Under the pieces are notes generated by a model. The model made no database searches and was not told the origin of the DNA. It saw nothing but the letters and a program-made list of their open reading frames with translations. A stretch of 57,771 nt of DNA from Syncephalis plumigaleata (lineage: Eukaryota; Zoopagomycota; Zoopagomycetes; Zoopagales; Piptocephalidaceae): contig JAIXMF010000045.1 of assembly GCA_025201365.1 (NCBI GenBank), forward strand, positions 1-57,771, given 5' to 3'. Shown one piece after another: positions 430 to 39,773 of this stretch (positions within the stretch are counted from its first letter, which is position 1; the number at the start of each line of letters is the position of its first letter). The translations under genes and the position numbers were made by a program.

Positions 430-1780
430 ATGAGATACATGATTTGTATGTACAGGGTTTTTCCAACCGATTAACACAGTTAGTCATTACTTTTGCCGTA
501 TATTAATAAGTAGATTTGCACAATTGTTAACACCGTTGTCACCATAGAAATGCCAATTGATATAGCATGATAATAATAACAATTCAGTATTAGTAATGGA
601 TCCTTCATTGATAGCGATAATTATCATCATCAATTCTATAAGGTAGACAATACAAATGTACTAGTATAGTTGGATATTGCCATGTCATGTACCTACAAGT
701 AGTAATAAACTAGTATGATAGATAAATTATGATGATAGTACTTACAATTGAGTGCATCGAGAGCAACGAGTGAACAAATAGAATACACGATAAACAATGT
801 AATAAACAAGCAGCAACTAGTAGAATGACTGAATTGTTATGAATGAGCAAGGAATGAGCAAGGAAGGGTGCATGAACATGTATACCAGTTTATTTGAAGA
901 AGCAGTGTATGCTTGTAGGTAGATAGAATATGTAGATGGCAGTAAACAAATGAAAATACAAATAAAAGCATGACGTAAGGGTGGCATACAAACAGATGAC
1001 GGAAAAGAGCGGTAAAAGTGAAAGGTGCATATTACAACGAGAGCAGTAAATGCTTAAACATTGATAAATAAGCAGGACAGTGATAGAAAACAAAGGACTA
1101 GAACAAACAATAAACAAGGCTTATTGGTATAGTAATAATAACGACAAGTGAGCATGTAGATAGGTTAGAGCAAGAGGAAAACAAAGAGATAAATAAAAGT
1201 CATAGAGATAGTATGGCAGAATAGCTGCTATTGGGAATGTATATGCTAAAGTGAAAGAAGGAGTAAGTAGAATGCGAATGACACGAAGAAGACGCGTATT
1301 ACTGAGAAAGTAAAAGAACTAGCTAGCATATAGTTAAGAGGAAGTAGACGCGTGTCGTTTACTGACAAGTGGAATGTAGTTGACACAAAGAAGGCACTTA
1401 TTGTTTAATGGTTAGGGAAATGTAGTTGGCACGAATAAGACGCGTGTTGTTGAATGACAGGGGAAATGAAGTTAGCAGAAAGAAGACAATAGTGGTAAAG
1501 AAGGGAAAGGGAAACATGGAAAACAGTTAGAATGCAGCTGACACGAAGAAGACGCGTGCTGTTTAAAGAAATAAATAACAAGGGGAATGAGCAATAGATG
1601 GAATTGTGGATACACGCAGAGTGAAATGATAATAGTGGCGAGCATGTGTATGTAGTGGGATAAGGTAGAATGAATGAATAAATTGTAATGAATAGAGAAA
1701 GCAACAGTGGAATGAATGGAGTAGCAAGTATAGAAATGTTTGTATGCAGTAATTTAAATTGTTAATGACAATAGTAGTAC
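430..1780 (+). repeat. Element 1 left terminal inverted repeat, non-coding
   Basis: Terminal non-coding part of the left arm, matched by 13220-14599 and, in its outer and middle parts, by 39900-41081 of element 2. It begins with the terminal core near 445-470. Between about 1270 and 1600 there are imperfect direct repeats built on a GACACGAAGAAGACGCGT unit, spaced roughly 45-110 bp, with ACGCGT at 1292, 1348, 1440 and 1552. Such subterminal clusters are typical transposase or host-factor binding regions in TIR elements (inference). Confidence 0.7.
890..1117 (-). other. 75-codon hydrophobic open frame, left TIR
   Basis: Open frame without an ATG at its 5' end; an internal ATG would give a hydrophobic peptide of about 47 residues. 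The same frame is open and indel-free at 13912-14139 and 40391-40618, with scattered amino-acid changes. It could be a small membrane peptide or chance openness in pyrimidine-rich TIR sequence. I lean to the latter. Confidence 0.2.
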
Positions 1781-1820
1781 ATTTATTGAACAGAATTGCA
1801 TGATACACCAGTGATGACAT

Positions 1821-4212
1821 TTAAGGAGCGTACCGTGGTCGCTTTGGCGATTGATCGGCCTGGTCGGATTGTGAGTGGCTAGCAAGCTCGCGCTTGTTCG
1901 TTTCTTCCAATGAATTAAGCCATGGATGCTGCAGGGCATCCTTGACCGTCATTCGTTGGATAGGATTCAATTGAAGAAGACGGTTAATAAAATCAATACC
2001 TAACAGTATTAATTGTAGTTAGCTGATTTTATTAGTGTACTCGTAACCTACCTTCGTGCACAGGTTCATTGAAATTTATAATTTTAAATGGTGTTTGTTC
2101 ATTTAAAACTTCCTTTAGGCACTCTTTATAAGTGCGCTTACCCATGCATCCCGGGAATGGATGATCATCTATAGTATATCGCGTTAGCTATCATTAGTTT
2201 TAAGCAGAGATTAACTTACAGGATAGCAGCAAATATGTAAGCACGCCTACGCTCCACATATCGCCACTTGTACTGCATCCAAGGTACGAATTTAAAATAT
2301 AGGCGACTTTCTGCATACCGATATCACCTTGGTTTATGAAGGATTGCACAATTGTAATCGCATCTTCCTGGCACAAGAGGATTTCCGGTGCCGTATACAT
2401 TGGGGTGCCAATAAGCGACTGGATAGGCGCATATGGATATGCGAATTCGTGCGACAATCCAAAATCTGCCAGGAGGATGTGTGTACAATCCTTGTCCTTG
2501 AAAAGAACATTTTCCAGCTATGTTTGTGTTAATATTTGTAATAAAGCAAATAAATAAATGACTTACTTTTATGTCTAATTGTAATTGGATTACATTAAAT
2601 AAATCACCATGAGTACACATTATTAGTTAATCCTAAGCACAGCTGATTACTTACCAAGGTGAGCGGTATTGGCGTTGTGCAAATCCTAATAGTATATGGT
2701 TAATATAGCTTTAATAGTAGTCATAGTTGTATTACTTACCTGAAGCGCCAACAGGATTTGGCGGACAATTGCCTTGACCTTGTCTTCAGGGAGAAGTATT
2801 GGGGTTTTCTTAATGTAGTCTAAAAGACTACCTCCCTTAGCGAGTTCCGCGACAACAAACGTGCCATAGTCATTTTGATTGAAGTTAATGACACGTAAAA
2901 TATTTTGTTGTTTGCGAAATTTTCGCATTATGCCCCATTCGTTTTCCAGTGCCGTATTGCCGCTATGGGCTTGCTTGATCGCCACTTCTTCCCCGGTAGT
3001 GCGCGATATTCCTTTGTAGACGGCGCCGAAACCGCCACTAGATGCGCACGTTAGCTATTCATTATAGAATTTCCCTGTATTTAGCTATTTGGTCGCTTAC
3101 CTGCCGAGACACTTTGTAGTGTGATAATAATCACCAAGCATCTGTATTGTGTTAGTAGTAATATTGTATACATTTGTCTCCATTTACCTGTGTGTAATAA
3201 ACAGGCAACACTTGCTCTGATTCTGCGTGTTCTAACGCGGTATATAAAAAATTGTCTATATATGTTGTTAGCTCAAGTTTATCAATGAAGTTGCTGTAAC
3301 TTACTATCACAAGCGTTTATATTGATGGTGCCGACGTTTATAAATGTTCTGTGTTCATTTTCTTGTATATTGTTTACTACAGAGTTGATTAGCATGAGTA
3401 TTCGACCGTACATACCAATAACTTACTAAATAAGGCAGCAGGGCCTCCATTCTAATAAATGATTAGTTAAACGTTCAATACATTTGAGCATAGTACTTAC
3501 AGTGATATGGATCTTGCCATTCTTCTAATGAGCTGCAGGTTAGATTATATCCATCGTTTAATATGATTATGATCTTACCTCTGATATATCAAGAGCACAG
3601 ATCGTATCGAGAGGAAACTTATAGTCACTAATATGTTGCAATTAGCAAGTAGATCAAAGTGACGTAATAGTAACTTACCAGTCAGCCCCATTACCGAATG
3701 ATAGTTTGCCGCCACGGTAAAGTAACAATTCTGTAGATAGGTTAGTTATTGTCGCCAGTATCATTTAAACACAGCTTACCTTGCTTATTATCCTCTTCTG
3801 GCGTTATCCACCCTACTAGCTTCGCGCGTTTCTCCTGCTGAAGCTTGAGCCACTCAAAAGGCACACGAATAAATTTACTGTGCTTTTTCTCTATACCTGA
3901 GCCACCGTCGCCAGCAGATGATAGTTGTGCTGGCTTTGGCGATAACACCACTGTTTGAGCAGGCACCGACTCCGAGGCGGCAGCAGCGACAGTGGTAGTA
4001 GTAGAAGCAGGAGCAGTGGCAGTAGCAGCAGTAGTAGGAGAGGTGGTAGCGGTAGTAGCAGGAGCAGTGGTGGTAGCGGGAATAGGAGCTGAAGTAAAAG
4101 CGGCAATACGTACTCTTCCACCGTTAATACCAGCGGTAGTAGCTGGTATTAGAATAGGTGCGGACTTTGACGCTGGCACTCGTACTGGTGCTGGACCGGC
4201 ACGTCGTTCCAT
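1821..4212 (-). CDS. FHA-like/Chk2-type Ser/Thr protein kinase, left copy (spliced)
   Basis: The same multi-exon gene as 10723-13207, on the opposite strand; every GT-AG junction I checked is conserved. Start at 4212 (MERRAG); stop TAA at 1821-1823. The N-terminus is Pro/Ala/Thr-rich and shorter or rearranged relative to the right copy. The FHA-like region keeps its YRGGK start but reads HRTFIN where the right copy has NGTFKN. The kinase domain has the Gly loop (GSGGFGAVYKG), VAIK lysine, HLD catalytic loop, DFG and GTPMYTAPE. An 8-nt exon (2567-2574) encodes most of the DIK triplet. In the parts of the kinase domain compared there are only a few changes from the right copy, so it looks intact and probably functional. 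It lies inside element 1, so it is mobile-element cargo rather than the resident checkpoint gene. Confidence 0.75.
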
Positions 4213-5855
4213 CTTGAGAGCGCAATCGTTAAGTATATAACCGTAAGAGTATAGAAAGTAGGAGTGGAGCCGTATGGATAAGTAAAAGCTTGCGCGTAAA
4301 CCAAGATTGAACTAGGTAGTGGATAGAACTGGAAGAGTAGCGGAATAAGAGGTTGTGCATAGCCCAGTACCTACTGTCGCCATCACTAGTGGCTTTATAT
4401 AACGCAGCACATAGGTCATAAAACTGAAGCTTTAGCTTATACCGCTACACTTCGTCCAGTACGCTTTGTACCTGTGAATATTTCAAGCTCCTACTGCGTA
4501 GAACTGAGCAGAACTGAACAGCTCTAACACTATAATAATCACATGTTTTTTACGATCTTTACCAATACTTGACCAATTTCGACGCGGCAAGTTCTCTTGG
4601 ATAGCTTGACATTTGACTAAATACGCTGTGCACATTTAATGTAGATATCTTTATTCATGATAAATTTCTAGGGCATATAAGATATTGGTCGTCAAGATAA
4701 ACAAGCAAAGTGACTGCGCGCTTGCATCGTCTTTATTTGGAAGGTGGTTTTGCTCTGCGTAAAGCAGCCACGATCTGTCTGATTATTGACAAAGCACTTC
4801 CGCACCGATATCGTTTACCAGGATCCCCTTCCTTTCTTTCCTCTTTTACTAGTGCTTATGAAGTTGGCAGTTCATCCCATTCTTTCGACGCTGTTGGCTC
4901 ATGCCAATTCAGATATCGCAAGCTATCGTTTTCCTCATTTCTTTGTTCACTTATCCAACACAACGCTTCCAAAAACGATTATCAAACAGCTATTCCATAT
5001 AGGTTACACAATCCTTACCAAAAAATTCTCACGCCGTTATTCCACCTATGCACTGTAGTCATGTCACTACAATATCGCACTGCAACCTAGCTTAACACTG
5101 TGCACGTTGTCACCGTCAACTACTATTTAATCCTAGCCTATCGGAACTAACCGACCGCACACTGCATCCGTTATCTTTCTCAACTGTCTACGTCTTTTGC
5201 GCTTTTTATTTCTCTTCCGTTTTCCACCATCATTCTGCTACTCTTTTCTTGTAATGACACTTCCTACATAATACTGTCGTTTATATACATAGAATGAGTT
5301 ATCCTTTATTATATTTGTTCGTATGGCGGTAACAATAAGTATGCTAATAGGTACTATATATTTGCGCTTTATTTGCTTGAATGTACACATGCATGGGACA
5401 TTGGTTGTTGGAGCTACAGTCGAAAGTAGCAGCGAGCTTAAGTGACTGGAGGTAGTACCGAGTAGTGGAACGGGGCACGCACTGCGATACAGTTTTCATC
5501 GAGTGCTGTTAAACCAGCTCTCCTTAAGTAAGCTGCTATGGTTGTAGTAATCCGCAATCAATGTAAGCGATACTTGAATGTCCTGGATAGTTGGAAGGCT
5601 AATGTACATAGCAGAGTTCTGCTATTACAAGACACTCATTTATCGCGGTAGGTAGATGTTGTGTATGTCCGCTATTACGCTGATCGAAAGATTGCTCAAT
5701 AGTATTCCGTGGGGAATTCTAGGACATACAACGGCATCTGCCTCGCTACCCTTTTGCTACTAACCATTTTGCTTAATTAGATAGCCGTTTATTCATATTA
5801 CGAGAATACGCGCAACGCACAACAATAGTTAGAAGGTAAGTAAATATGGCCACTC
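4213..5855. other. Inner part of left arm, no supported gene
   Basis: Sequence upstream of the left kinase gene, repeated inverted at about 8773-10722. Several frames of 60-130 codons are open but begin at non-ATG codons, are not all kept in the other arm and show no domain. The first few hundred bases presumably contain the kinase promoter. A GTAAGT donor near 5836 followed by AG suggests a possible intron leading into the hydrophobic frame that starts at 5856. Confidence 0.5.
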
Positions 5856-6119
5856 GTGCATACATTCAATATTAATAGCTGCCGTTTACTAATTACACTC
5901 TTTATTATTCATTTACAACGCTATCAACCATTTAATTACTGCCATTATAGTCTAAACATTGCAATCATAGGAAGCATATTTGGGTTGCCTAAGCCAGCAT
6001 TGTTTGGCTTAGGAGGGATAGGGGTAGCTTACTGGTCTATGGCCGGTATTGCTTTGGGTGTACACAAATATGCTTCCTATGCGGGTTTTCCTTCACTTAA
6101 TAAACATATTATAACATAA
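5856..6119 (+). other. 87-codon hydrophobic frame over a nested inverted repeat (left arm)
   Basis: The frame is nearly identical in the other arm (8509-8772). It has no ATG start, but could be the last exon of a small spliced gene via an upstream GTAAGT donor near 5836. The C-terminal half is Gly/Ala-rich and membrane-like (GLGGIGVAYWSMAGIALG). The same DNA is a perfect 17-bp inverted repeat (5966-5982 with 6065-6081) enclosing a 9-bp stem (5988-5996 with 6005-6013). It is also more GC-rich than its surroundings. It may be coding, a structured RNA, or a small inserted element. Confidence 0.35.
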
Positions 6120-7249
6120 CTTTATTCATTGCTAATGCAAGTGACAACATCCAAACAACATGTACTAATTTTCATTCTAAATGTCAACCAACTAATACTC
6201 AACAACAATAGCAATATACCGGAATAATCAACCACGCTAATGCTTATTGCCAATACTCATTGCCATCCATCATTGACAAGCATCCACTAGCAATATTAAT
6301 AAACATGAATCATTTTGATCTATATTGACATGTCATTACTGTATCCCTTCCTATCTCATTATTGCTTCATTACCTTCTACTTGCCAGATCAACACTCTAT
6401 CTTAGCATACTCGCTCTTCTCTCTCATTCAGAATCAATCATTCCATACACTCATTCCATTCTACTATTCCGGCATCTTCATCAGTAATGTAAGTCATTTA
6501 TTCCATTCTACAGTCATTATACACATAACAATAAAGATAAGCTGTCCATTGTGTGCACATTCTAATATAGCGTAAACACAGATATTTATTATGATCTACT
6601 CGTTATTCACATTCTTGCCAATGCTTTTACACAATAAACATCCATCTTTACAACAACTATATGTTGATTTTTCGAGCAACTGCTGTTCTACATTGATGCA
6701 AATGGTGTATATCATAGATGAATCTATACTAGATGATTAGCCTTGCTCGGCTTTGACGACGACTGAAACGGTTAGTCCACCCACTGACCGAGAATAACAT
6801 CCGACTCCATTCTAATTACCGAATACTTGCTGCGGTATGTCAGCCATGTGATATGCCCAGTTTTATTTACCGATTGAGACGACGACTGCCCATACTCATA
6901 TAGAAGTGCCGTTAATGGTAATAATCGAGTGTTCGCTATGCTGGCAGTAATTAATGTAGCATAGATTGCATAATAGCAGTATCACGTGTATCAATATCTA
7001 TCATTAATCATATCATATGGATGTTTATAGACTGATGATGATGATGGTATCATTAGTAGTAATAATTGCTAGCTGATCATTCTAATCCATTCAACTAATA
7101 GTGAATATCGTACACGAATACTATATGATAAAGTAACGGTTTATAATTGGTATGTGTCTGGCAACTTGGTTCTATGTGTTCAGGATGATCGAATGAATCA
7201 GGTCGTTATTCAATAGGCTTGCTAGCACATCATCGATGGGATGTTGCTA
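6120..7249. other. Centre of element 1, left part: mosaic of repeated element DNA
   Basis: Non-palindromic spacer. About 6440-6570 matches, inverted, the region 33190-33300 near the left end of element 2. About 6540-7249 matches, inverted, 36090-36800 of element 2, the 3' side of the IleRS fragment. The sequence ending CAHSN(I/T)A then stop at 6550-6575 is shared with the minus strand of element 2 near 36790. No intact gene; I read it as rearranged captured DNA. Confidence 0.5.
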
Positions 7250-8482
7250 TCAGTTACATGAATGCATAGCAGCGTCAATGACGTGTCCTTTGTTATTGTT
7301 CACAACAAGCTGGTATCGATTGCATAGACATTCCGGTTGATCACATCGATAGCTCCAACATCTAGGACATTTATGTCGTGCCGATAAACATAGGATCATT
7401 TGACCAGATGCACCATTCATAGTGTCTATTACGTTGTCGATCAATAGTCATTATCATGGCACGCTCATGCTTCATACTCCATGCTTACTTGGTAATGATA
7501 TCGTTTCACTAATAAGGACAGTGTCATTTCTCGTGGTTAATGTCGACTGTGCAGCAACATTAACCGATGCACATAAGAACAGTTCAGGCAGTTGTGATGC
7601 TAATGCGTATTGCTTAATAAACTATATACAACCGATATCACTATCGCTATTATTATTATTGTCGTCTTACCGTATTTATGTAGCAATTGGCCTAGTGGAG
7701 ATATCGCACTGTCTTCTAGTTCTAGTGTCAGGTTGATTTGCGCGCTTGTCTTGATTCCTCTGTCAGTCAGTGAAATTTGTAAATAAATCATTTGCTATAC
7801 TGCAGATAGTACTTACTTGACCTGTCGCACCTTCTCGACTAGCTGGTAGTACTGACTACGAAGGTGTCGTAGCACTGTCCAGTCTTGTTCCAAAGCAGTA
7901 TTATGCCAACGATCATCCTATTCATTGCCAATGCTCGAGTGTTAGACCATACATAGCTCAGTGATTGTAAGTGTTTACCAGAGATATCCATCCGACTGGA
8001 ATACGCTATCAAGCGGTGTCGACCAACTCGACGAGGAGAAAAGCTGAATCTCCTCGGCTAAATGACAAGTAATTGGTGCGAATGCGCGTGTGTACACCTC
8101 AATTATCTATATGGCATTCCTTGCTTAGGTACAGTTGCATACCAAGTATCAATGGATTCTTACGCGGTATACGGCAGTCTGTGCTGATCTTCGTGCCAGC
8201 GATAATTTGTCGTCAGCGTAAACGCGCTCCTTGATAGATTCAAAGTAGAACGCCGATAGTTGTGAGTTGGTAAAGCGATTCAATTCTTGAATAACTACAA
8301 TAAACAAGGAAAATATTAGTTTTACCGTTGTGTATGCTGCTCACACTTCTTATTGACATACCTTTATTGAACGAGAATACCTCGTAGGCATTGCTAATAA
8401 GCGTGGTAGAGCAATGTAGTTCATGTAAGATATAATGATCTATCAAGTAACGATGAGAATGCAAAAAGGTTAACGTAATCAA
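7250..8482 (-). pseudogene. Captured C-terminal fragment of isoleucyl-tRNA synthetase (element 1)
   Basis: Spliced reading gives the C-terminal part of a mitochondrial/bacterial-type IleRS: a stretch around LIDHYILHELHCS and FSFNK, then IQELNRFTNSQLSAFYFESI and the RRSAQTAVY motif, the helical anticodon-binding domain ending near LEDSAISPLGQLL, a linker exon with LPELFLCASV, and the zinc-binding tail beginning HKCPRCWSY. Introns are short GT-AG. The HIGH/KMSKS catalytic domain is absent, so it cannot aminoacylate. The last zinc ligand is lost here (CLCNRY, versus CLCNRC in element 2). The fragment starts almost at the junction with the right arm, as expected of gene capture. The parent gene is not in the window. 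Confidence 0.75.
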
Positions 8483-8508
8483 TATCCACTGTTATTAAGT
8501 TGATTGTA

Positions 8509-8772
8509 CTATGTTATAACACGTTTATTAAATGAAGGAAAACCCGCATAGGAAGCATATTTGTGTACACCCAAAGCAATACCGGCCATAGACCAGTAAG
8601 CTACCCCTATCCCTCCTAAGCCAAACAATGCTGGCTTAGGCAACCCAAATATGCTTCCTATGATTGCAATGTTTAGACTATAATGGCAGTAATTAAATGG
8701 TTGATAGCGTTGTAAATGAATAATAAAGAGTGTAATTAGTAAACGGCAGCTATTAATATTGAATGTATGCAC
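8509..8772 (-). other. 87-codon hydrophobic frame over a nested inverted repeat (right arm)
   Basis: Inverted copy of 5856-6119, with only a few changes near its end (for example SFNKRV for SLNKHI). The stem-forming sequences are unchanged. Conservation of both frame and stem means the two copies cannot tell a protein from an RNA role. Confidence 0.35.
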
Positions 8773-9804
8773 GAGTGGCCATATTTACTTACCTTCTAAT
8801 TATTGTTGTGCGTTGCGTGTATCCTCGTAATATGAATAGACGGCTATCTAATTAATCAAAATAGTTAGTAGCAAAAGGGTAGCGAGGCGGATGCCGTTGT
8901 ATGTCCTAGAATTCCCCACGGAATACTATTGAGCAATCTTTCGATCTGCGTAATAGCGAACATAAACAGCATCCACCTACCGTGATAAATGAGTGTCTTG
9001 TAATAGCGAAACTCTGCTATGTACATTAGCCTTCCAACTATCCAGAACACTCAAGTATCGCTTACATTGATTGCGGATTACTACAGCCCATAGCAGCATA
9101 CTTAAGAATTTGGGGTAGCAGCGCTCGATGAAAACTGTATCGCAGTGCGTGCCCCGTTCCACTACTCTGCACTAGTCCCAATCGCTTAAGTAGCTGCTAC
9201 TTTCTGCTGTAGCTCCAACAACCAATGTCCCATGCATGTGTACATTCAAGCAAATAAAGCGCAAATATATAATACCTAATAGCATACTTATTATTAACGC
9301 CGTACAAACAAATATAATAAAGAATAACTCATTCTATTATATAAGCGACAGTATTATGTAGGAAGTGTCATTACAAGAAAAGAGAAGCAGAATGATGGTG
9401 GAAAACGAAAGAGAAATAAAAAGCGCAAAAGACGTAGACAGTTGAGATAGGTAACGGATGCAGTGTGCGGTCGGTTAGTTCCGATAGGCTAGGATTAAAT
9501 AGTAGTTGACGGTGACAACGTGCACAGTGTTAAGCTAGGTTGCAGTGCGATATTGTAGTGACATGACTACAGTGCATAGGTGGAATAACGGCGTGAGAAT
9601 TTTTTGGTAAGGATTGTGTAACCTAGATGGAATAGCTGTTTGATAATCGTTTTTGGAAGCGTTGTGTTGGATAAGTGAACAAAGAAATGAGGAAAACGAT
9701 AGCTTGCGATATCTGAATTGGCATGAGCCAACAGCGTCGAAAGAATGGGATGAACTGCCAACTTCATAAGCACTAGTAAAAGAGGAAAGAAAGGAAGGGG
9801 ATCC

Positions 9805-10378
9805 TGGTAAACGATATCGGTGCGGAAGTGCTTTGTCAATAATCAGGCAAATCGTGTCTGCTTACATAGAGCAAAACCACCTTCCAAATAAAGACGATGC
9901 AAGAGCGCAGTCACTTTGCTTGTTTACCTTGACGACCAATATCTTATATGCCCTGTAAATGTGTCATGAATAAAGGAATCTGCATTAAATGTGCACAACG
10001 TATTCTACCAAGTGTCAAGCAATGTAAGCAAACTTGCCACGTCGAAATCGGTCAAGTATTGGCAAAGATCGTAAAAAATGGATGGATGGATGGATGGAAA
10101 TCCTGGTAAATGATATCGGTGTGGGTCCTTTGTCAATAATCAGACAGATCGTGGCTGCTTTACGCAGAGCAAAACCACCTTCCAAATAAAGACGATGCAA
10201 GCGCGCAGTCACTTTGCTTGTTTATCTTGACGACCAATATCTTATATGCCCTAGAAATTTATCATGAATAAAGATATCTACATTAAATGTGTACAGCGTA
10301 TTTAGTCAAGTGTCAAGCTATACAAGCGAACTTGCCGCGTCGAAATTGGTCAAGTATTGGCAAAGATCGTAAAAAACA
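9805..10378. repeat. Tandem duplication (about 290 bp) in the right arm
   Basis: Two diverged copies, about 9805-10078 and 10101-10378, each running from TCCTGGTAAA(C/T)GATATCGGTG to TTGGCAAAGATCGTAAAAAA. The seam is a short GGAT/ATGG tetranucleotide run (about 10078-10100). The left arm has a single copy (about 4555-4830, inverted). The copies differ at many positions, so the duplication is not recent. Confidence 0.7.
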
Positions 10379-10722
10379 TGTGATTATTATAGTGTTAGAG
10401 CTGCTCAGCTCTGCTCAGTTCTGCTTAACTCTACGCAGTAGGAGCTTGAAATATTTCCAGGTACAAAGCGTACTAGACGAAGTGTAGTGGTATAAGCTGA
10501 AGCTACAGTTTTATGACCTATGTGCTGTGTTATATAAAGCCACTAGTGATGGCGACAGTAGGTACTGGGCTATGCACAACCTCTTATTCCGCTACTCTTC
10601 CAGTTCTATCCACTACCTAGTTCAACCTAGGCTTACGCGTAAGCTTTCACTTAAGTTCCATACAGCTCCACTCCTACTTTCTATACTCTTATTGCAATAT
10701 ACTCAACGATTGCGCTCTCAAG

Positions 10723-10843
10723 ATGGAACGACGTGCCGGTCCAGCACCAGTACGGGTGCCAGCGTCAAAGTCCGCGCCTATTCTAATACCAGCTACTACC
10801 GCTGGTATTAACGATGGAGGAGTACTTATTGCCGCCTCCAATT

Positions 10844-10877
<34 letters not shown>

Positions 10878-13207
10878 CGCTGCCACTGCTCCCGTTACTA
10901 CTACTGCTCCTACCACTACTCCTGCTCCCGTCCCCGCCACTACTCCTGCTCCTGCCGCTGCCACTGCTCCCGTTACTACTACTGCTCCTACCACTACTCC
11001 TACTCCCGTCCCCGCCACTACTCCTACTCCTGCCGCTGCCACTGCTGCTGCCTCGGAGTTGGTGCCAGCCCAAGCAGCGGAGCCATCACCAAAGTCAGCA
11101 CAACAATCAACTGCTGGCGATGGTGGCTCAGGTGTAGGGAAAAAGCACAATAAATTTATTCATGTGCCTTTTAAGTGGCTCGACCTTCAGCAGGAGAAAC
11201 GCGCGAAGCTAGTAGGGTGGGTAACGTCAGAAGAGGATAAGAAGCAAGGTAAGCTGTGTTTAAATGATATTGACAACAATAACTAATCTATCTACAGAAT
11301 TGCTACTTTACCGTGGTGGCAAGCTATCATTCGGTAATGGGGCTGACTGGTAAGTTACTATTACGTCACTTTGATCTACTTGCTAATTGCAACATATTAG
11401 TGACTATAAGTTTCCTCTCGATACGATCTGTGCTCTTGATATATCAGAGGTAAGATCATAATCATATTAAACGATGGATATAATCTAACCTGCAGCTCAT
11501 TAGGAGGATGGCAAGATCCATATCATAGTAAGTACTATGCTCAAATGTATTGGACTTTTAACTAATTGTTTATTAGAATGGAGGTTCTGGTGCCTTAACT
11601 AGTAAGTTGTTGACATGTACGGTCAAATATTCATGCTAATCATTTCTATAGTAAACAATCAGCAGGAATTTAGAAACGGCACGTTTAAAAACGTCGGCAC
11701 CATCAATATAAACGCTTTTGATTGTAAGTTACAGCAACTTCATTGATAAACTTGAGCTAACAACATATATAGACAATTTTTTATATACCGCGTTAGAACA
11801 CGCAGAATCAGAGCAGGTGTCGCCTGTTTATTATACACAGGTAAATGGAGACAAATGTATACAATATTACTACTAACACAATACAGATGCTTGGTGATTA
11901 TTATCACACTACAAAGTGTCTCGGCAGGTAAGTGAACAAATAGCTAAATACAGGGAAATTCTATAATGAATAGCTAACGTGCGCATCTAGTGGCGGTTTC
12001 GGTGCCGTCTACAAAGGAATATCGCGCACTACCGGGGAAGAAGTGGCGATCAAGCAAGCCCATAGCGGCAATACGGCACTGGAAAACGAATGGGGCATAA
12101 TGCGAAAATTTCGCAAACAACGAAATATTTTACGTGTCATTAACTTCAACCAAAATGACTATGGCACGTTTGTTGTCGCGGAACTCGCTAAGGGAGGTAA
12201 TCTTTTAGATTACATTAAGAAAACCCCAATACTTCTCCCTGAGGACAAGGTCAAGGCAATTGTCCGCCAAATCCTGTTGGCGCTTCAGGTAAGTAATACA
12301 ACTATGACTACTATTAAAGCTATATTAACCATATACTATTAGGATTTGCACAACGCCAATACCGCTCACCTTGGTAAGTAATCAGCTGTGCTTAGGATTA
12401 ACTAATAATGTGTACTCATGGTGATTTATTTAATGTAATCCAATTACAATTAGACATAAAAGTAAGTCACTTATTTATTTGCTTTATTACAAATATTAAC
12501 ACAAACATAGCTGGAAAATGTTCTTTTCAAGGACAAGGATTGTACACACATCCTCTTGGCAGATTTTGGATTGTCGCACGAATTCGCATATCCATATGCG
12601 CCTATCCAGTCGCTTATTGGCACCCCAATGTATACGGCACCGGAAATCCTCTTGTGCCAGGAAGATGCGACTACAATTGTGCAATCCTTCATAAACCAAG
12701 GTGATATCGGTATGCAGAAAGTCGCCTATATTTTAAATTCGTACCTTGGATATAGTATAAGTAGCGATATGTGGAGCGTAGGCGTGCTTACATATTTGCT
12801 GCTATCCTGTAAGTTAATCTCTGCTTAAAATTAATGATAGCTAACGCGATATACTATAGATGATCATCCATTCCCGGGATGCATGGGTAAGCGCACTTAT
12901 AAAGAGTGCCTAAAGGAAGTTTTAAATGAACAAACACCATTTAAAATTATAAATTTCAATGAACCTGTGCACGAAGGTAGGTTACGAGTACACTAATAAA
13001 ATCAGCTAACTACAATTAATACTGTTAGGTATTGATTTTATTAACCGCCTTCTTCAATTGAATCCTATCCAACGAATGACGGTCGAGGATGCCCTACAAC
13101 ACCCATGGCTTAATTCATTGGAAGATAATAACAAGCGCGAACTTGACAGTCTCTCGCAATCCGAGCAGTCTGAGCAATCGCAAAAGCGACCACGATGCGC
13201 TCCCTAA
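10723..13207 (+). CDS. FHA-like/Chk2-type Ser/Thr protein kinase, right copy (spliced)
   Basis: About 590 residues after splicing roughly a dozen short introns. Residues 1-175: low-complexity Pro/Ala/Thr (APAPAP and TTTPTP runs), then a basic segment. About 176-275: FHA-like domain (YRGGKLSFGNG, ICALDIS, KIHIIN, then NGTFKN). About 280-580: CAMK-like kinase with GSGGFGAVYKG, VAIKQ, HLDIKLENVLF in place of the usual HRD, LADFGLS, GTPMYTAPE, DMWSVGV and RMTVEDALQHPWL. About 28 extra residues lie between APE and DMW. An 8-nt exon (12454-12461) codes most of the DIK triplet. The C-terminus has a basic QKRPR patch. FHA plus CAMK-type kinase is the layout of Rad53/Chk2/Dun1 DNA-damage kinases (family knowledge); the FHA match is weak. 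Start at the first ATG; stop at 13205. Cargo of element 1. Confidence 0.8.
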
Positions 13208-13219
13208 ATGCCCTCTCTA

Positions 13220-14599
13220 GTGCATCATACAATTTTGTTCAATAAATGTATTACTATTGTCATTAACAATTAAATTACTGCATACAAACATTTTCATACT
13301 TGCTACTCCATTCGTTCTATTATTGCTCTCTTTATTCACTATACTTATTTATTTCCATCATTCTATCTTTCCACTACCTATACATGCTTGCCACTATTCC
13401 CATTTCTCACTGCATGTATTCACTATTCCACCTATTGCTCATTCCCCTTGTTGTTTACTTCTTTACACAACGCGCATCTTCTTTGTGTCAACTGCATTCT
13501 AACTGTTTTCCATGTTTCCCTTTCCCTTCTTTACCACTATTGTCTTCTTTCTGCTAACTTCATTTCCCCTGTCATTCAACAACACGCGTCTTATTCGTGC
13601 CAACTACATTTCCCTAACCATTAAACAATAAGTGCCTTCTTTGTGTCAACTACATTTCACTTGTCAGTAAACGACACGCGTCTACTTCCTCTTAACTATA
13701 TGCTAGCTAGTTCTTTTACTTTCTCAGTAATACGCGTCTTCTTCGTGTCATTCGCATTCTACTTACTCCTTCTTTCACTTTAGCATATACATTCCCAATA
13801 GCAGCTATTCTGCCATACTATCTCTATGACTTTTATTTATCTCTTTGTTTTCCTCTTGCTCTAACCTATCTACATGCTCACTTGTCGTTATTATTACTAT
13901 ACCAATAAGCCTTGTTTATTGTTCGTTCCAGTCCTTTGTTTTCTATCACTGTCCTGCTTATTTATCAATGCTTAAGCGTTCACTGTTCTCGTTGTAATAT
14001 GCACCTTTTACTTTTGCCACTCTTTTCCGTCATCTGTTTGTATGCCATCACTACGTCATGCTTTTATTTGTATTTTCATTTGTTTACTGCCATCTACATA
14101 CTCTATCTACCTACAAGCATACACTGCTTCTTCGAATAAACTGACATACGTGTTCATGTGCCCTTCCTTGCTCATTCCTTGCTCATTCATAACAATTCAG
14201 TCATTCTACTAGTTACTGCTTGTTTATTACATTGTTTATCGTGTATTCTATTTGTTCACTCGTTGCTCTCTATGCACTCAATTGTAAGTACTATCATCAT
14301 AACTTATCTATCATACTAGTTTATTACTACTTGTAGGTACATGAAATGGTAATATCCAACTATACTAGTACACTTGTATCGTCTACCTTATAGAATTGAT
14401 GGTGATAGTTATCGCTATCAATGAAGGGTCCATTACTAATACTGAATTGTTATTATTATCATGCTATATCAATTGGCATTTCTATGGTGACAACGGTGTT
14501 AACAATTGTGCAAATCTACTTATTAATATACGGCAAAAGTAATGACTAACTGTGTTAATCGGTTGGAAAAACCCTGTACATACAAATCATGTATCTCAT
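13220..14599 (-). repeat. Element 1 right terminal inverted repeat, non-coding
   Basis: Inverted match of 430-1780. It is pyrimidine-rich on the plus strand, with ACGCGT at 13584, 13676 and 13732 inside the repeated subterminal units, and the terminal core at about 14560-14584. The hydrophobic frame 13912-14139 is the counterpart of 890-1117. The outermost 15 bp are the inverse of 430-444. Confidence 0.75.
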
Positions 14600-18577: not shown

Positions 18578-19032
18578 ATGTCTGATAATATCGTCAATAG
18601 TGATAGTAGCAATATGGAGGATAAGGTAGAATCTACAAAGACAGAGGATAAGACAAAAGTTCTATTAGATTCGGTAAGTAAGAAAAGCTTAGAACCAGTA
18701 ACGAATTCATTTGACTAACCTCTTTAATATTGCGACAATAGACACAAGAACTTATTAAATCATTGGTATGATGTATTAACAAGTATGTATGCTTTCATAT
18801 GACTAACAATGATGGTGTATATACTGATATGTAGAAGACAAAAATGACCACTTCAACTGATCCTGTAGTTCTACGATGTAAGTGAGCATTTAACACAATT
18901 AGAGATATGCTAATTGTAATAATGATGTGCTCATATGTGCATACTACTAGTGGATGCATTGGACAAGTGTGCCAATAGATTGAAGCAGCGAGTAGATCGT
19001 ATGACAACAACAACAACAAGTACTACAGGGTA
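18578..19032 (+). CDS. Small acidic/coiled-coil protein, unknown
   Basis: Four small exons (first 18578-18673, second 18742-18765) encode roughly 77 residues: an acidic, Ser-rich N-terminus (MSDNIVNSDSS) and a heptad-like helix around LDALDKCANRLKQRVDRM. The size and helix recall small coiled-coil adaptors such as HSBP1 or BLOC-type subunits, but I cannot assign a family. The last codons (TTTTTSTTG then stop) run into the eroded left end of element 3: the stop TAA is inside ACAGGGTAA. The original C-terminus may therefore have been replaced by transposon sequence. Divergent partner of CTU1. Confidence 0.55.
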
Positions 19033-19105: not shown

Positions 19106-19123
19106 ATGATTTATTGATAGCTG

Positions 19124-33009: not shown

Positions 33010-33160
33010 ATGATGAGTCAACTTTGTATACGAGATTTTTCCAACCAATTAACACAGTTAGTCATTACTTTTGCTGTTTATTAATAAATAGATTTGCACA
33101 ATTGTTAACACCATTATCGCCGTAGAAATGCCAGTTGACACAGCACGATAATGACATGAT
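33010..33160 (+). repeat. Element 2 left TIR
   Basis: Terminal repeat diverged from its partner at the right end (CGAGATTTTTCC versus CAGGGTTTTTCC, and a different TATTAAT block). Yet the outermost 13 bp (33010-33022) are the exact inverse of 41069-41081. It is the closest relative of the eroded left end of element 3. Confidence 0.7.
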
Positions 33161-34869
33161 AGAATGACATGAGTAGATTAGTGAATGGTATGAAGCAATG
33201 GACAGCTTGTCTTTATTGTTATGTGTATAATGGTAGTAGAGTGGAATAAATGGCTTACATCACCGATAGAAATGCCGGAATAGTAGAATGAGTAATGTAG
33301 AATGGAATGCAGTCAATATCGTTGACAGTTGGATGTTCTAATTGTAATATTGTTAGTGCATTGTAATAAATGAGCTTACCTGTAATTAATAATTATAATG
33401 AGTGATTATAATAAAGTGTTAAAGTATATTATGTCCCCATCATATCCACCACCGCATCACCGCTTCTACGATGAATGCAGAATGTTATGTTGAAGCAGCT
33501 GAATAGCCTTGCGACAAATATACCGCTATACTGCTGAATATTAACGTAATAACACTAAGCAGTAGGTGCTACGACAATGTGTATAAGGCCATCTGTAATA
33601 AATGGCCATATACGCATTGCCGTAGTGTTCGCGATATACCAGCTGAGACACATACAAGGGATCAGTAGATTAGCACATTGATACAAATGTATCTGTGCTA
33701 ATAGGACATAACATAATAAATAAAGGGATTAGGATGATGCAAAGAGAGGATGTGGAGATATGAACAAAAGATACAATTAAAATGTAATAGGATAGCGCAA
33801 ATAAAGAATGATTAAACACACACAAAAACATATCATTAAATGAGGTCAGTCACCATAATAGCAAGTAAACTAAGCCCTTCTCCTTGAAGTAGCAACATGA
33901 TGGTCAAATATCATGGCAAAGCATAGCTAAATGATATTATGATGGCAAATATCTCAAACACATATCAATATAGAATAAAGATACATGTTCAAGCATTTGC
34001 AAACCGATACATCTCATAATACTCATATAATAGAGAGGCTATCGCGCTACATTAACAACTTAATGACCTGTAGAAACAATAGCTCAGTAGATTATTCCCT
34101 AGGAACCAGGAAAACTTTTGAAACCTATCGTTAAACCTCCATACACCATTGTTTTGCAGCACCTTCATATTATACATGAATGCCCGCAAGCAAGTAGCTT
34201 CATATTATACAAATATATGAATGTCCGCAAGCAAGTAGCGTAGAAGACCGACACCCATTACAGGTACCGACATCACACTGAGTTGAAGAAAGTCAACTAC
34301 GCTCATTACCACACTCAGCGCTACGCTACACGCAAACAGTTTACAGAGCACTGACCTATTTCGCTATGTGTATGTTTAAACAAAGAAAGTAAAAGTGAAA
34401 GTAAAGAATGAAGAGTGAAAAGCGAAGTAATGAGAGAAGAGCGAAGAGCGAAGAGAAGCGAGGAAGCTAAGCGTGATGAAGTACTGAGAGAAGAAGAGAG
34501 AAGAGAGGAGAAGCTAAGCAAGCTGTAGAATCGAGCGCTATTTATTTGTTAAAATGACGTCGTTAATCGTCATTTAGTGGTTCAAGTAAGTATTAATGAT
34601 GCCTCATTATAAATCGTTTTGAAATTTAGTATGTCGATAAACACACACTTCGATAATCCAACTTGAGCATATCCTTGTATTTCATTTCATTTTATTTCTT
34701 ACATATATGATCTTTTTACTCGAATGTTGCATAATAGTGTTTATTACAATAAAATAAAGTATGACAACATTGAAAAGAGAGAGAAATGATATATTTAGTA
34801 TGTGCAAAGGGCGCAGTCATTATTACCATTTAGACTGCACACTATTCTGTATTGGGTATTGATTACGTC
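33161..34869. other. Left internal region of element 2, no gene
   Basis: 33190-33300 matches 6440-6570 of element 1, inverted. A tandem duplication lies at about 34165-34240 (two units containing CTTCATATTATACA ... GCAAGCAAGTAG, about 35 and 41 bp). A purine-rich degenerate tract of AAG/GAGCGAAG type runs from about 34380 to 34520. No supported reading frame. Confidence 0.5.
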
Positions 34870-36089
34870 AACCTTTTTTGCATTCTCATCGTTACTTGAT
34901 AGATCATTACATCTTACATGAATTACATTGTTCTGCCACGTTAATTAGCAATGCTCACCAAGGATTCTCGTTCAATAAAGGTATGTCGATATGAAGTGTG
35001 AATAACATACACAACGGTGGAACTAATATTTGCCTTGTTTATTGCAGTTATTCAAGAATTGAATCGCTTTACCAACTCACAACTATCGGCGTTCTACTTT
35101 GAATCTATCAAGGAGCGGCTTTACGCTGGCGACAAATTATTGTTGGCACGGAGATCAGCACAGACTGCCGTATACCACGTAAGTTACTAACATTTGGTAT
35201 GCAATTGTAGCTAAGCAAGGAATGCCGCATAGATTATTGAGGTGTACACACGCGCACTCGCACCAATTACCTGTCATTTAGCCGAGGAGGTTCAGTTTTT
35301 CTCCTCGTCGCGTTGATCGACACTACTTGATAGCGTATTCCAGTCGGGATGGATATCTCTGGTAAACACTTGCAATCACTGAGCTATGTGTGGTCTAACA
35401 CTCGAGCATTGATATGAATAGGATGGTCGTTGGCATAATACTGCTTTGGAACAAGACTGGACAGTGCTACGACACCTTCGTAGTCAGTACTACCAGCTAG
35501 TCGAGAAGGTGCGACAGGTCAAGTAAGTACTATCTGCAGTATAGCAAATGATTTATTTACAAATCTCATTGGCTGACAGGGAAGTCAAGACAAGCGCACA
35601 AATCGATCTGTCACTAGAACTAGAAGACAGTGCAATGTCTCCACTAGGCCAATTATTACAGAAATACGGTGAGGCGACAATAATAACAATAGCAATAGTG
35701 ATATTGGTTGTATATAGTTTACTAAGCAATATGCATTAGTATCACAACTACCTGAACTGTTCTTATGTGCATCGGTTAATGTTGCTGCACAGTCGACATT
35801 AACCACGAGAAATGACACTGTCCTTATTAGTGAAACGATATCATTACCAAGTAAGGATGAAGTATGCCGTATGAGTATGCCATGATAATGACTATTGATC
35901 GACAATGTAATAGACACTATGAACGGTGCATCTGGTCAAATGATTCTACGTTTATCGGTACGACATAAATGTCCTAGATGTTGGAGCTATCGATCTGATC
36001 AATCGGAATGTCTATGCAATCGATGCCAACTTGTTGTGAACAATAACAAGGGACACATCATTACTACTGCTATGCATTCATGTAACTAA
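34870..36089 (+). pseudogene. Captured C-terminal fragment of isoleucyl-tRNA synthetase (element 2)
   Basis: Collinear with 7250-8482 and sharing its introns: LIDHYILHELHCS, IQELNRFTNSQLSAFYFESI, the RRSAQTAVYH exon, an anticodon-binding helical region, then HKCPRCWSY and CLCNRCQ, keeping all four zinc cysteines. Relative to element 1 there are many substitutions, one extra T in a T run at the start, and AHQGFSF where element 1 has AYEVFSF. No Rossmann-fold catalytic part. Introns are retained, so capture was at the DNA level, not through mRNA. Whether any of it is translated is unknown. Confidence 0.72.
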
Positions 36090-37371
36090 TAGCAACATCC
36101 CATCGATGATGTCCTAGCAAGCCTATTGAATAACGACCTGATTCATTCGATCATCCTAAACACATAGAACCTAGTTGTTAGACACATACCCATTATAAAC
36201 TGTTACTTTATCATATAGTATTCGTGTACGATATTCACTATTAGTTGAATGAATTAGAATGATCAGCTAGCAATTATTGCTACTAATGATACCATCATCA
36301 TTATCATCATCGTCAGTTTATAAACATCCATATGGTATGATCAATTATAGGTATTACTACACGCGATACTGCTATTATGCAATCTATGCTACATTAATTA
36401 CTGCCAACATAGCGAACACTCGATTATTACCATTAACGGCACTTCTATATGAGTATGGGCAGTCGTCATCTCAATCAATAGATTAAACTGGGCATATCAC
36501 ATGGCTGACATACCGCAGCAAGTATTCGGCAATTAGAATGTAGTCGGATGTTATTCTCGGTCAGTGGGTGGACTAACCGATTCAGTCGTCGTCAAAACCC
36601 AGCAAAGCTAATCATCTAGTATAGATTCATCTATGACATACACCATTTGCATCAATGTAGAACAGCAGTTGCTCGAAGGATCAACGTATAGTTATTGTAA
36701 AGATGGATGTTTATTGTGTAAAAGCATTGACGAGAATGTAAACAACGAGTAGATCATAATAAATCTCCGTGTTTACGCTGTATTAGAATGCGCACACAAA
36801 GTATTATTATCGCCACCTAGTTCGAATACATTCATTGCTGCTATGGCCACTGGCTCTACTGTACTCGATTCAAAATCAATAATTTAGTGCAGTTTACTAG
36901 ATGGATTTATATACATGTCTTCTGCTATCATCTTACCTGTAAGTCTTGTGCTGTCGTGTAGTCCTATTCGATTAATGTTATTAACGATTTAATAGTTATC
37001 AAACTAGTGAACGGAATGACCACGTATGCATATATGCTTACAACGAGAATGCAATGCTCGATTTTACCAAATACTTTAATGATAATTTACAGTGTCAACT
37101 ATACCATACTAAATAAATTGGATCCACATTACAAATACTCGCATACTCCATAATCATATGCTGTATATCGAGTCGTTATCGAATTCTACGTCTGGATATG
37201 CTATAGTAATAATAACGATGCTTAATTAATCGTACATTCAATGATCATTGAAATATAACAATAAAGACAACATTGGTACGCTGACACTCTCATACAAACA
37301 TAGGCCCATGCTACGAAGCAACCTACAGTCAAGATAAGATTATAATACAGCAATAAAATAGAATGATCAAA
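36090..37371. other. Element 2 internal spacer with a second captured piece
   Basis: The first 700 bp match the centre of element 1 (6540-7249, inverted). On the minus strand near 36795-36865 a frame reading VEPVAIAAMNVFELGGDN and ending CAHSNTA-stop follows a plausible GTAAGA...ACAG intron (donor near 36948), so it may be the last exon of another host gene. I do not recognise it. The rest is AT-rich with no gene. Confidence 0.35.
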
Positions 37372-37791
37372 CTAAAACGAGCCTTCGCTGTTTGCTGACA
37401 ATATAGTACAATTAAGAACGAGCAGTATACCAACCATTCCAATTAATAAGTTGTTAGCACGTATATGGCAAAGGATCATACATATACGCTTGCACCTGAT
37501 AACACTACAATAATGTCTACATGTATGTGACCAAAGAAAGAGATAAATAAAATGGATGGGTGTAATCCATGGCATTTTATTAGACGTATAAGTGACATGT
37601 GAGAGCAAGAACGCACAGAGAAACGGTAGAAATGAGCTGAAGGAGCGGAAGAGAAGAAGAGAAGAATGTATATAGCGTGCACGTTTAGTTATTTGTATTG
37701 CCTTATTATGCCAAAGAGCGGCAATTAAGGTAAATAAACACTCTATTGTATAGACAAGAAGCAGCGCTGTCAGTATAGCGAGGAATAGCAA
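37372..37791 (-). other. 139-codon hydrophobic open frame in element 2
   Basis: Longest frame in the left-type arm of element 2: rich in Leu/Ile/Ser/Cys, several membrane-like stretches, non-ATG start, no motif. It lies in a region related to the TIR sequences, where pyrimidine-rich strands tend to be open by chance. Probably not a gene; listed because of its length in AT-rich DNA. Confidence 0.15.
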
Positions 37792-38570
37792 GTGCCGCGA
37801 ATGAACAAATTATCAGCACGCTTAGCAGGTTGTATGTTACTGGTAGTCGAGAATAGAATGGAACAAGCCCGAGGAATAGACTAACGACAAGTGATATATT
37901 GTTAAGAATGAAAGGGAAGGAACAAGTAATAAAGTAATAAGTACTCGGTACAAAGACACGCATACTCGAACAACTTGCAGAAACGACGTATGTTTGTAGT
38001 GGAATAACGACGTGTAGATATCATTATGATAGAGTGGAGTGATATATGAACGAATAGTGGAAAAAAGACAGAGTGGGGATGACGTGTATCAGCGAGGATA
38101 GCAGACACACAAACAATATTACGCATACAAGACAGAACAGTGTATGCTAATGAGTAGAACAAACAATAAACAAAGGTGTTAGGACACTAAAGACAAATGA
38201 GCACATAAATGAGCTAAGAATAGTAGTAAACAAAGGAATAGCCAGAAGCAATAAACAAGGAATATAGGAATAGAATGACACAAAGAAGACGCGTATCATT
38301 GAGAAAGAATAGGTAAATAAAGAAAGAGAATGCGGTTGACACAAAGAAGGCGTGTGTTGTTTACTGACAAGTGGAATGTAGCAGGCACAAAGAAGGCACT
38401 TACTGTTTAATGGTAAGGGAAATAAGTAGAATGCAGTTGGCACAAAGAAGAAACGTGTTGTTTAATGACAAGTGGAATGTAGTCAAGGCTAAGAATATGT
38501 GTATTGTTCAGTGACAAAGGGAATGTAGTTGGCACTAAGAAGACAGCATTGGTAAAGAAGTAAAGGGAAA
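37700..38570 (+). repeat. Internal left-type terminal-repeat copy in element 2
   Basis: Resembles 890-1600 of element 1 (runs such as AACAAACAATAAACAA, and repeated units near GACACAAAGAAGACGCGT at 38280-38560, with ACGCGT at 38289). It is inverted relative to 39930-40660 of the same element. The truncated F-box gene thus sits between a left-type and a right-type arm, as in a smaller nested element. Confidence 0.55.
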
Positions 38571-38959
38571 CAACAATGAAATGGGTACTTGGAAATGGAT
38601 TAGTACATCATTAATGCCATTAGACACTAATAACAAACATGTCAATTAGTATTGACACTTATTGATTGCTAATAATAGACAAATAAACTAAATATATACT
38701 TATTGAGCATCTTTGAATGCTTCTATTTGAATGACAATGGATTGCTTTGTGTATTTGACTCACGTGTATAGACTACTACAATAAAGATATTGCTACAATG
38801 GTGTCAAGACAATGACGCGACGTGTTAGTTGGCGTGTAGATTAGCAATATAAATATATCATTATATACTAACTACGAAAAATCACATATAAAAATGAAGC
38901 TATACAAGCAGCTAGTAGGCTAGAACATCTACTCTTAACTGCTTTTATTTTGAAGTATA

Positions 38960-39773
38960 TTGACTAAAACTCTTTTTTTACTTATCTTTGCTATATCAAA
39001 AGGTGAGATGGGGGCGCTAAAGAATGCGAATTGGTATGATGTCTATCTTTGGGGGGTTACGACAAAAAATAACTGGCGTTATGGCCATTTCAACACGGTT
39101 GAGATTCGATTCGATGCAAATAGGAGGCGCTCTTGTAACGTAGTAGTAGAGAGCACATTTGCGTCCGCCTTGGGTTCCATGTTCGAGCTCAAGCGGCGTA
39201 ATGGCGGTAATAGCTGGGAGGGTACCAGCTATTACCTTGAGCCTGCTGCGCATCGGAATCTCAAGCAGCGTCACAACAAGACTGAAAACGCTGCCGTTGA
39301 CATCCTTCAAATGCCTAAGTAAAGGCTGTCAGCGGCAAATGGGACTTCTGGACGAGAAATTCCAAAAATAACAATTTTTTAAGGTAAGTGTTATATAATT
39401 AAAACACAAGTATACTAACATTATTTATACAATCAATATATCTTTATTAAATATAGAAAAAGCCATCATCTATCCAAATCGTATTGATGGCGCTTGGCAG
39501 GTAGCATGTTTCTATGAAACCAGCGATAGACATGCTACACTCTACACTGCGAGATTAAAAGAAGATGATCGTACTTGCCTTGAATGGGCACTCTATCATT
39601 TTCCCGCCGTGTCTCAAGAGGTTGAGCGGCTTCGGGACGGCTCGTTTCCTTTGCCTAATGAGCCCGCCAATGAGCTTCTACGTGCATACGCCATTCAACA
39701 TTCTCAAACCACATTTAGCGAAAAACGAAACCGACAATTTGGAATTACATTAACGGGCTATGGACCATTATAA
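38960..39773 (+). pseudogene. Truncated F-box-family gene captured in element 2
   Basis: Two segments parallel the F-box-type gene of element 3. The first (LKNANWYDVY...NNWRYGHFNTVEI) corresponds to LENVDWYNTY...NNRRYGRCKTTHI. The second (39457-39773; GAWQVACFYETSDRHATLYT, then LEWALYHFPAV) corresponds to DTWNVTYFYKTTNDTAIVYM and VEWALYQFSSD. The F-box itself and much of the middle are missing, and the first frame stops at 39322 before the second begins. The coding DNA is noticeably richer in G+C than the element 3 gene, so the two are diverged paralogues, not recent copies. Confidence 0.6.

What the first reader, a model, noticed from the sequence alone, without database searches (positions are those of the whole stretch)
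430..14599. Giant fold-back element carrying two copies of an FHA-like plus Chk2-like kinase
Sequence: two arms of 5.7-6.1 kb, inverse to each other, each with a complete multi-exon kinase gene with consistent splice sites, bounded by termini shared with element 2. Established knowledge: FHA plus CAMK-type kinase is the Rad53/Chk2/Dun1 DNA-damage checkpoint layout. Inference: a mobile element carries and keeps an apparently intact checkpoint-like kinase, which could modulate the host damage response to its own excision or bias replication or inheritance. I know of no described element family with this cargo.
Basis: partly seen in the sequence, partly recalled or inferred. Interest (0 to 1): 0.85.

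Follow-up and report, generated by a model that had tools for sequence, protein, structure and literature searches.

The report
Palindromic transposon-like element with paired kinases
A fungus-like genome holds many large mirror-image DNA segments, each with two copies of the same unusual kinase gene facing away from each other and some still edged by the ends of a Fanzor-type transposon, showing how mobile DNA and copying between mirror arms may keep a fast-changing gene family alive.

Summary
Window 430-14599 is a 14.2-kb inverted repeat with a complete 14-exon protein kinase gene in each arm. It is one of a family: 38 places with the kinase 3' end, haplotype copies included; 11 of 13 neighbouring pairs within 40 kb are divergent, none convergent. 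Four loci share the layout kinase-spacer-IleRS fragment-spacer-kinase. The shared termini are left ends of a TA-flanked transposon whose full copies encode Fanzor1. The kinase domain is under purifying selection (pooled pN/pS 0.29) and 14 of 21 copies modelled are open. New points: the other haplotype of this locus is a near-perfect palindrome (7.4-kb arms, 99.2%), strong evidence that arms are recopied; exons are mosaics between copies; introns are more conserved than the large kinase exons. Best reading: a dispersed palindromic element seeded by two Fanzor-transposon left ends, kept by gene conversion, with a diversifying kinase of unknown role. Present mobility is not shown.

The parts
430..450 (.). 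21-bp flank outside the left TA, repeated in inverse at 14579-14599; its 13 outer bases differ from those at element 2
451..1660 (+). left end of a Fanzor-type transposon, starting TA-CAGGGTTTTTCC, with ~46-bp subterminal repeats; 89-92% identical to two Fanzor1-carrying elements over ~1 kb
1821..4212 (-). left kinase gene, 14 exons, 564 aa, no internal stop
4279..6118 (.). arm spacer, with a short inverted-repeat MITE-like unit near 5970-6090 (read by eye)
6119..8509 (.). loop, largely shared in inverse with element 2 (33196-36799), where degenerate IleRS exons were recognised
8510..10653 (.). right arm spacer, inverse of the left one
10723..13207 (+). right kinase gene, 14 exons, 595 aa, no internal stop; Pfam Pkinase E 9.4e-51
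13371..14578 (-). second copy of the Fanzor-type left end, in inverse
14579..14599 (.). inverted 21-bp flank
33029..41060 (.). element 2: two left ends (the left one degraded), IleRS fragments, a gene read by eye as two exons (about 39008-39773), no kinase match

Best explanation
Element 1 belongs to a dispersed family of large palindromic elements. Each has two divergent copies of a CAMK-group kinase gene around a captured isoleucyl-tRNA synthetase fragment, and some keep outward-facing left ends of a Fanzor1-type DNA transposon. Shown: repeated layout, intact genes, purifying selection on the kinase domain, a rebuilt palindrome in one haplotype, mosaic exons. Inferred: a pair of left ends was once mobilised in trans by whatever moves the Fanzor elements; many copies later spread or were trimmed by recombination; arm-to-arm gene conversion keeps the two genes alike and intact, as in gene-bearing palindromes of Y chromosomes. 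The kinase is probably a working, diversifying protein whose target is unknown.
For: Kinase 3' end: 41 matches, 38 kept after dropping 3 short partial ones; 11 of 13 neighbouring pairs within 40 kb divergent, 2 same-direction, 0 convergent; 9 of 11 after merging two allelic pairs, P 1.3e-4 against 0.25. Layout shared by el1, C290, C24:512-523k and C373:253-266k. Terminus beside the kinase at el1, C373:252k, C373:530k, C24:711k, and a degenerate one at C373:574k/C72; the two outer flanks tested are single-copy. Two full copies with this left end carry long ORFs; the one tested hits PDB Fanzor 1 of Parasitella (E 1.3e-112) and Spizellomyces Fanzor (2.5e-40). C24 allele: 7.4-kb arms at 99.2%, inner parts 99-100% alike, outer parts like C324. 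Kinase dN/dS: winR/winL 0.24; 24 close pairs pooled pN/pS 0.29.
Against: Of 18 outer ends at 10 loci, 6 show a terminus-like end and only el1 of 8 pairs shows both; four pairs clearly lack at least one, while 0.8-1.0 kb at five ends was not read. Several loci share a truncated junction beside another module (window 36806-37171), which looks like segmental duplication. No transposase search could be run, no target duplication beyond TA was seen, no empty site found. 5 of 21 copies are frameshifted as modelled and 2 have a stop near the C-terminus. The rebuilt palindrome could partly reflect change of the C324 left arm by a copy elsewhere: winL exon 1 is 98% like C290. No expression data.
Confidence: 0.6

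Rival explanations
1. A host kinase gene family was amplified by inverted and segmental duplication, partly near contig ends, and the Fanzor left ends are passengers caught in the duplicated unit; the palindromes never moved as transposons.
For: 12 of 18 outer ends show no terminus in what was read, and several share the same truncated junction with module 36806-37171; copies lie near contig ends at C24, C329, C157, C373 and C90. Contig ends are not shown to be telomeres.
Against: A left end lies about 1.0-1.5 kb beyond the kinase 3' end at el1, C373:252k, C373:530k, C373:574k and C24:711k in different flanks; el1 is TA-flanked on both sides.
Confidence: 0.3
2. The kinase is a selfish trait of the element, for example a killer/protector or incompatibility gene, kept by drive and diversified by exon exchange.
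For: Fast N-terminus (pN/pS 1.14 in close pairs), mosaic exons, many intact dispersed copies. Spok drivers also join a relocating block with a kinase domain (PMC6660238, abstract and passages).
Against: No killing domain recognised, no segregation data; Spok has a nuclease domain and a kinase-like domain of another type.
Confidence: 0.08
3. One reading: the kinase acts on the DNA-damage checkpoint to help the element.
For: The N-terminal motif FG-x4-CDY recalls Rad53/Chk2 FHA; RAD53 is among the PDB relatives of the kinase domain.
Against: No FHA by Pfam, PDB profile search or hhalign; the arginine after FG in Rad53 and Chk2 is asparagine in 12 of 12 copies aligned; twitchin and DAPK rank above RAD53.
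Confidence: 0.04
4. Assembly artefact from folded reads.
For: Arm stretches read at C290, C24:512k and C373:253k are 99.7-99.9% identical.
Against: el1 arms differ by about 6% in C324 and both haplotypes hold it; even the C24 palindrome keeps 3-5% arm differences at the steps between 0.15 and 0.9 kb from its ends.
Confidence: 0.03

Closest known systems
Fanzor1 TIR elements and their 'ghost' loci (Spizellomyces punctatus Spu-1)
   Same: Inverted-repeat ends; loci with the ends but without the Fanzor gene, and 11 Fanzor loci with further genes between the ends, are described (PMC10432273, passages only)
   Different: Here two left ends face outward, blastn found no Fanzor gene or right end in el1, and each arm carries a kinase gene; size 14-15 kb
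Foldback elements (Drosophila FB, Galileo, Tetris, Tm1)
   Same: Very long inverted repeats, partly internally repetitive (search listing only; FB recalled)
   Different: Arms carry a multi-exon kinase gene; ends are Fanzor-type
Gene-bearing palindromes with arm-to-arm gene conversion (human Y, Adineta vaga, Folsomia candida)
   Same: Paired genes in inverted arms, homogenised by conversion (PMC5490193, passages only)
   Different: The same palindrome recurs at many loci and is joined to transposon ends
Spok block / Enterprise of Podospora
   Same: Relocating block carrying a gene with a kinase domain (PMC6660238, abstract and passages; Enterprise recalled)
   Different: No nuclease domain recognised, different kinase type, palindromic, different ends

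Membership tests
Fanzor1-type TIR transposon | Terminal sequence shared with Fanzor1-encoding copies | tested here: met
   el1 ends 89-92% identical over ~1 kb to L041 and L042; L042 ORF is Fanzor1 by PDB match
Fanzor1-type TIR transposon | Fanzor gene or right end (omega RNA region) in the element | tested here: not met
   blastn: L041 and L042 match el1 only in their left ends; none of the 91 listed Fanzor protein matches is on C324 or in C24:222-238k
Fanzor1-type TIR transposon | TA on both sides | tested here: met
   el1, L041 and L042; element 2 on its right side only
Foldback element | Very long inverted repeats around a middle piece | tested here: met
Foldback element | Mobility as a unit (empty sites, polymorphism) | tested here: inconclusive
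   Two flanks single-copy, no second haplotype to compare; el1 present in both haplotypes
Chk2/Rad53 kinase | FHA domain | tested here: not met
   No FHA in Pfam or in a PDB profile search; hhalign 2%, score 18.4, 1 of 40 shuffles higher. A strongly diverged FHA is not excluded
Chk2/Rad53 kinase | Kinase domain closest to Chk2/Rad53 | tested here: not met
   Against PDB chains only: twitchin and DAPK rank first, RAD53 lower; no tree was built
CAMK-group protein kinase | Kinase match and catalytic residues | tested here: met
   the group name is recalled
Gene-conversion palindrome | Arms more alike within than between loci, with conversion tracts | tested here: met
   C324 itself is the exception, with arms ~94% alike
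Spok-type meiotic driver | Killing and protecting activity | not testable with these tools
   no genetic data

The most novel reading that the evidence does not exclude
A palindromic transposon, made of two Fanzor left ends, keeps its kinase cargo as a selfish or immunity-like trait: arm-to-arm conversion repairs the pair, and exchange between copies across conserved small introns shuffles exons so that a large repertoire of kinase variants is held in one genome.
Probability: 0.12. Interest if true: 0.9.

Novelty: new variant of a known kind. Interest (0 to 1): 0.6.

Why it matters
It gives a natural case where one locus has a diverged and a freshly rebuilt palindrome in the two haplotypes, so that palindrome renewal can be mapped. 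It also shows Fanzor-type ends bordering intact host-like genes, which bears on the open question of what these ends move. The kinase family, with large exons more diverged than its introns, is a good model for diversification by exon exchange.

Tried and rejected
FHA domain: Pfam, a PDB search with a 12-copy profile, and hhalign against Rad53 and Chk2 FHA gave nothing convincing. Resident Chk2: a Chk2 query at E 1e-6 hit kinase parts only, best C124:206.7k; none of the 7 FHA places lies within 70 kb of one of the 72 listed Chk2 matches, so a resident Chk2 is neither shown nor excluded. Viral origin: one scan of viral contigs, 75 pattern matches, none a relative. Empty palindrome TTTGTATGTACATACAAA: no exact match in the genome. 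Empty sites: none found at the two flanks tested.

A first count of neighbouring pairs (11 of 12) was wrong; one same-direction pair had been missed. The recount is 11 of 13. The 40-kb limit was chosen after seeing the list; merged counts are 8 of 9 at 20 kb and 9 of 12 at 50 kb, where one pair is convergent. The mirror count for element 2 was out of register and is not used; its flank was read by eye.

Literature: searches held 102, 29, 15, 1, 13, 2 and 0 papers, of which I saw listings of 15, 15, 8, 1, 8, 2 and 0. None listed describes, in its title or the start of its abstract, a fold-back or Fanzor-type element with kinase cargo. The library holds open-licence PMC papers only.
Full report
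OBSERVATION. The window is the whole contig C324 of a 32.6-Mb, 383-contig genome. Its other haplotype at this place is C24: el1 lies at C24:222.5-237.9k. Element 1 (430-14599) is a real inverted repeat, with main blocks 82-98% complementary. Exon limits read from splice sites give two complete kinase genes with 14 exons, 13 of 13 GT-AG introns of 46-80 nt, and no internal stop: 595 aa on the right (10723-13207, +) and 564 aa on the left (1821-4212, -). Pfam gives Pkinase at 9.4e-51. The Lys, Glu, HLD, Asn, DFG and APE positions are invariant in a six-copy alignment (motif names recalled).

TERMINI. A search with window 430-830 listed 40 scored matches of 751 candidates, so copy number is a lower bound. 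23 of the 40 alignments start at query base 22, the TA of TA-CAGGG. Two full copies, L041 and L042, match el1 over their left ~1 kb at 89-92% and carry ORFs of 696 and 634 aa. Pfam finds only weak OrfB/TNB traces, but the L042 protein hits PDB Fanzor 1 of Parasitella parasitica (E 1.3e-112) and Spizellomyces Fanzor (2.5e-40). Both copies are flanked by TA on both sides. Element 1 has two of them, facing outward; blastn with these two copies finds no Fanzor gene or right end in it, and none of 91 listed Fanzor protein matches falls in it or in its C24 allele. Published work on S. punctatus describes ghost loci with Fanzor ends and no Fanzor gene, 11 Fanzor loci with further genes inside the ends, and no transposase within them (PMC10432273, passages).

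FAMILY. The kinase protein gave 117 exon-level matches at E 1e-10. The 3'-end DNA gave 41 matches; dropping 3 short partial ones leaves 38, haplotype copies included. Of 13 neighbouring pairs within 40 kb, 11 are divergent, two same-direction, none convergent. Counting el1/C24:223k and C373:559k/C72 once each (the second inferred as allelic from equal scores and spacing), it is 9 of 11, P 1.3e-4 against 0.25. Pairs at the starts of C157 and C383, where one 3' end runs off the contig, are not counted. The middles at C290, C24:512-523k and C373:253-266k show the same spacer, IleRS fragment and spacer, mostly at 90-95% identity to el1. The IleRS label rests on two exon peptides of element 2, whose loop is 91-94% like that of el1 in its main blocks: zf-FPG_IleRS 6.6e-4 and Anticodon_1 2.4e-5, both just under the curated cut-offs, and a PDB IleRS match at E 0.12.

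ENDS OF OTHER COPIES, AGAINST THE SIMPLE READING. I looked at 18 outer ends at 10 loci, at most of them in 0.9-kb stretches placed where the end was expected. Six show a terminus-like end: el1 both, C373:252k, C373:530k, C24:711k, and a degenerate one at C373:574k. At least 13 keep some left-end sequence. One (C24:512k, left) has none between 510.0k and the gene; at five ends 0.8-1.0 kb was not read, one of them with 70 bp of left end next to the gene (C329:993k). Only el1 of 8 pairs shows both termini; C290, C24:512k, C24:8/21k and C329:1370/1405k clearly lack at least one. Ends at C290 (left), C329:1406k and C24:22.7k break at about the same point of the left end (window ~720), and these and C329:1368k and C373:266.8k hold a module like window 36806-37171. 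This favours later trimming or segmental duplication for many copies. Two flanks tested are single-copy in the assembly, which fits separate sites but gave no empty allele.

ARM RECOPYING. In C324 the arms are ~94% identical and the loop is 2.4 kb. In the C24 allele the arms are 7.4 kb at 99.2% with a ~0.6-kb spacer. In 150-bp steps, the C24 left arm matches the C324 left arm at 97-100% in the first ~1 kb, and the right arms match at 91-100%, while the two C24 arms differ there by up to 5%. Inward of ~1.47 kb the two C24 arms are 99-100% identical and match the C324 right arm at 97-100% except in one step; against the C324 left arm they fall to 81-93% in 11 of 20 steps and stay at 95-100% in the others. 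The odd step (3566) has winL and winR alike (99%) and both unlike C24 (84-85%), a short conversion tract. The simplest reading is that in C24 one arm overwrote the other from the middle outward; part of the contrast may instead come from change of the C324 left arm by another locus (its exon 1 is 98% like C290). Arm stretches read at C290, C24:512k and C373:253k are 99.7-99.9% identical inside the locus.

SELECTION AND MOSAICS. I modelled 21 copies by exon transfer: 14 are uninterrupted (three of them fetched without their 5' end; four are the two alleles of el1), 2 have a stop close to the C-terminus, 5 are frameshifted as modelled. Nei-Gojobori counts used 14 copies (12 uninterrupted ones and the 2 with the late stop; the frameshifted copies and the near-identical C24-left and 512k copies were left out). 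Kinase domain: winR/winL dN/dS 0.24; 24 pairs with kinase dS up to 0.1 pooled pN/pS 0.29; the pairs printed are mostly 0.19-0.40, with one close pair at 0.76 (4 synonymous, 11 nonsynonymous) and one at 0. FHA-like part 0.41; first 130 aa 1.14. Between winR and six distant copies, introns are 68-100% identical (median 88, 78 introns) and exons 9, 12, 13 and 14 are 61-89% (median 69, 24 exons); kinase dS reaches 1.0-1.4 for the farthest of them while introns 1-7 differ by 0.11-0.155. Nearest neighbours change along the gene: c90_147 is closest to c373_571/c373_530 in exon 9 (6.7%) but to c157_8/c111 in exons 12-14 (1.7-5.8%); c24_19 differs from winR by 34% in exon 9 but by 12-14% in exons 12-14. 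I read this as exchange of exon-sized pieces with homogenised introns; stronger constraint on introns is not excluded. Pair counts are not independent, and gene conversion violates the assumptions of dN/dS.

KINASE IDENTITY. Best PDB matches of the kinase profile are twitchin and DAPK, with RAD53 lower. FHA tests failed: no Pfam FHA for the protein or for 12 of 12 N-terminal segments; the only PDB profile hit was an unrelated protein at 0.62; hhalign to Rad53/Chk2 FHA aligned 15 columns, probability 2%, and 1 of 40 shuffles scored higher. The motif FG-N-x3-CDY lacks the arginine that follows FG in Rad53 and Chk2 in 12 of 12 copies (its role in binding is recalled). A diverged FHA is possible but not shown.

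CONCLUSION. A family of palindromic, kinase-bearing elements with Fanzor-type left ends is real; recopying of arms at el1 is strongly supported; mobility is inferred; the kinase's role is open. I score interest 0.6: surprising in design and useful for study, with mechanism steps still missing.

Noticed in passing
19021-20990: A ~2-kb unit with Fanzor-like ends around ORFs of which one is F-box-like (Pfam 5.4e-4, below the cut-off). Its 245-aa ORF is one of 150 scored matches of the element 2 protein in the genome. L041 has a similar unit beside its Fanzor gene.
   Followed up: partly
430-450, 14579-14599; 33010-33029, 41061-41081: Locus-specific inverted flank of 13 bp plus a shared TTTGTATG (or TTTGTAT) outside the ends of element 1 and element 2. 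Origin unexplained; the exact empty palindrome TTTGTATGTACATACAAA was not found in the genome.
   Followed up: partly
L014 and L022 outer flanks (C343:26.1k, C24:591.6k): Two left ends at different loci share ~28 bp of outer flank with one mismatch, as if nested in another repeat.
   Followed up: no
about 39008-39773: Gene in element 2 without a convincing Pfam family; its C-terminal part matches the large family that includes the window ORF at 19124-19861.
   Followed up: partly
C329:991-1018k: Three kinase copies and IleRS-loop sequence in one ~27-kb stretch, perhaps a compound palindrome.
   Followed up: no
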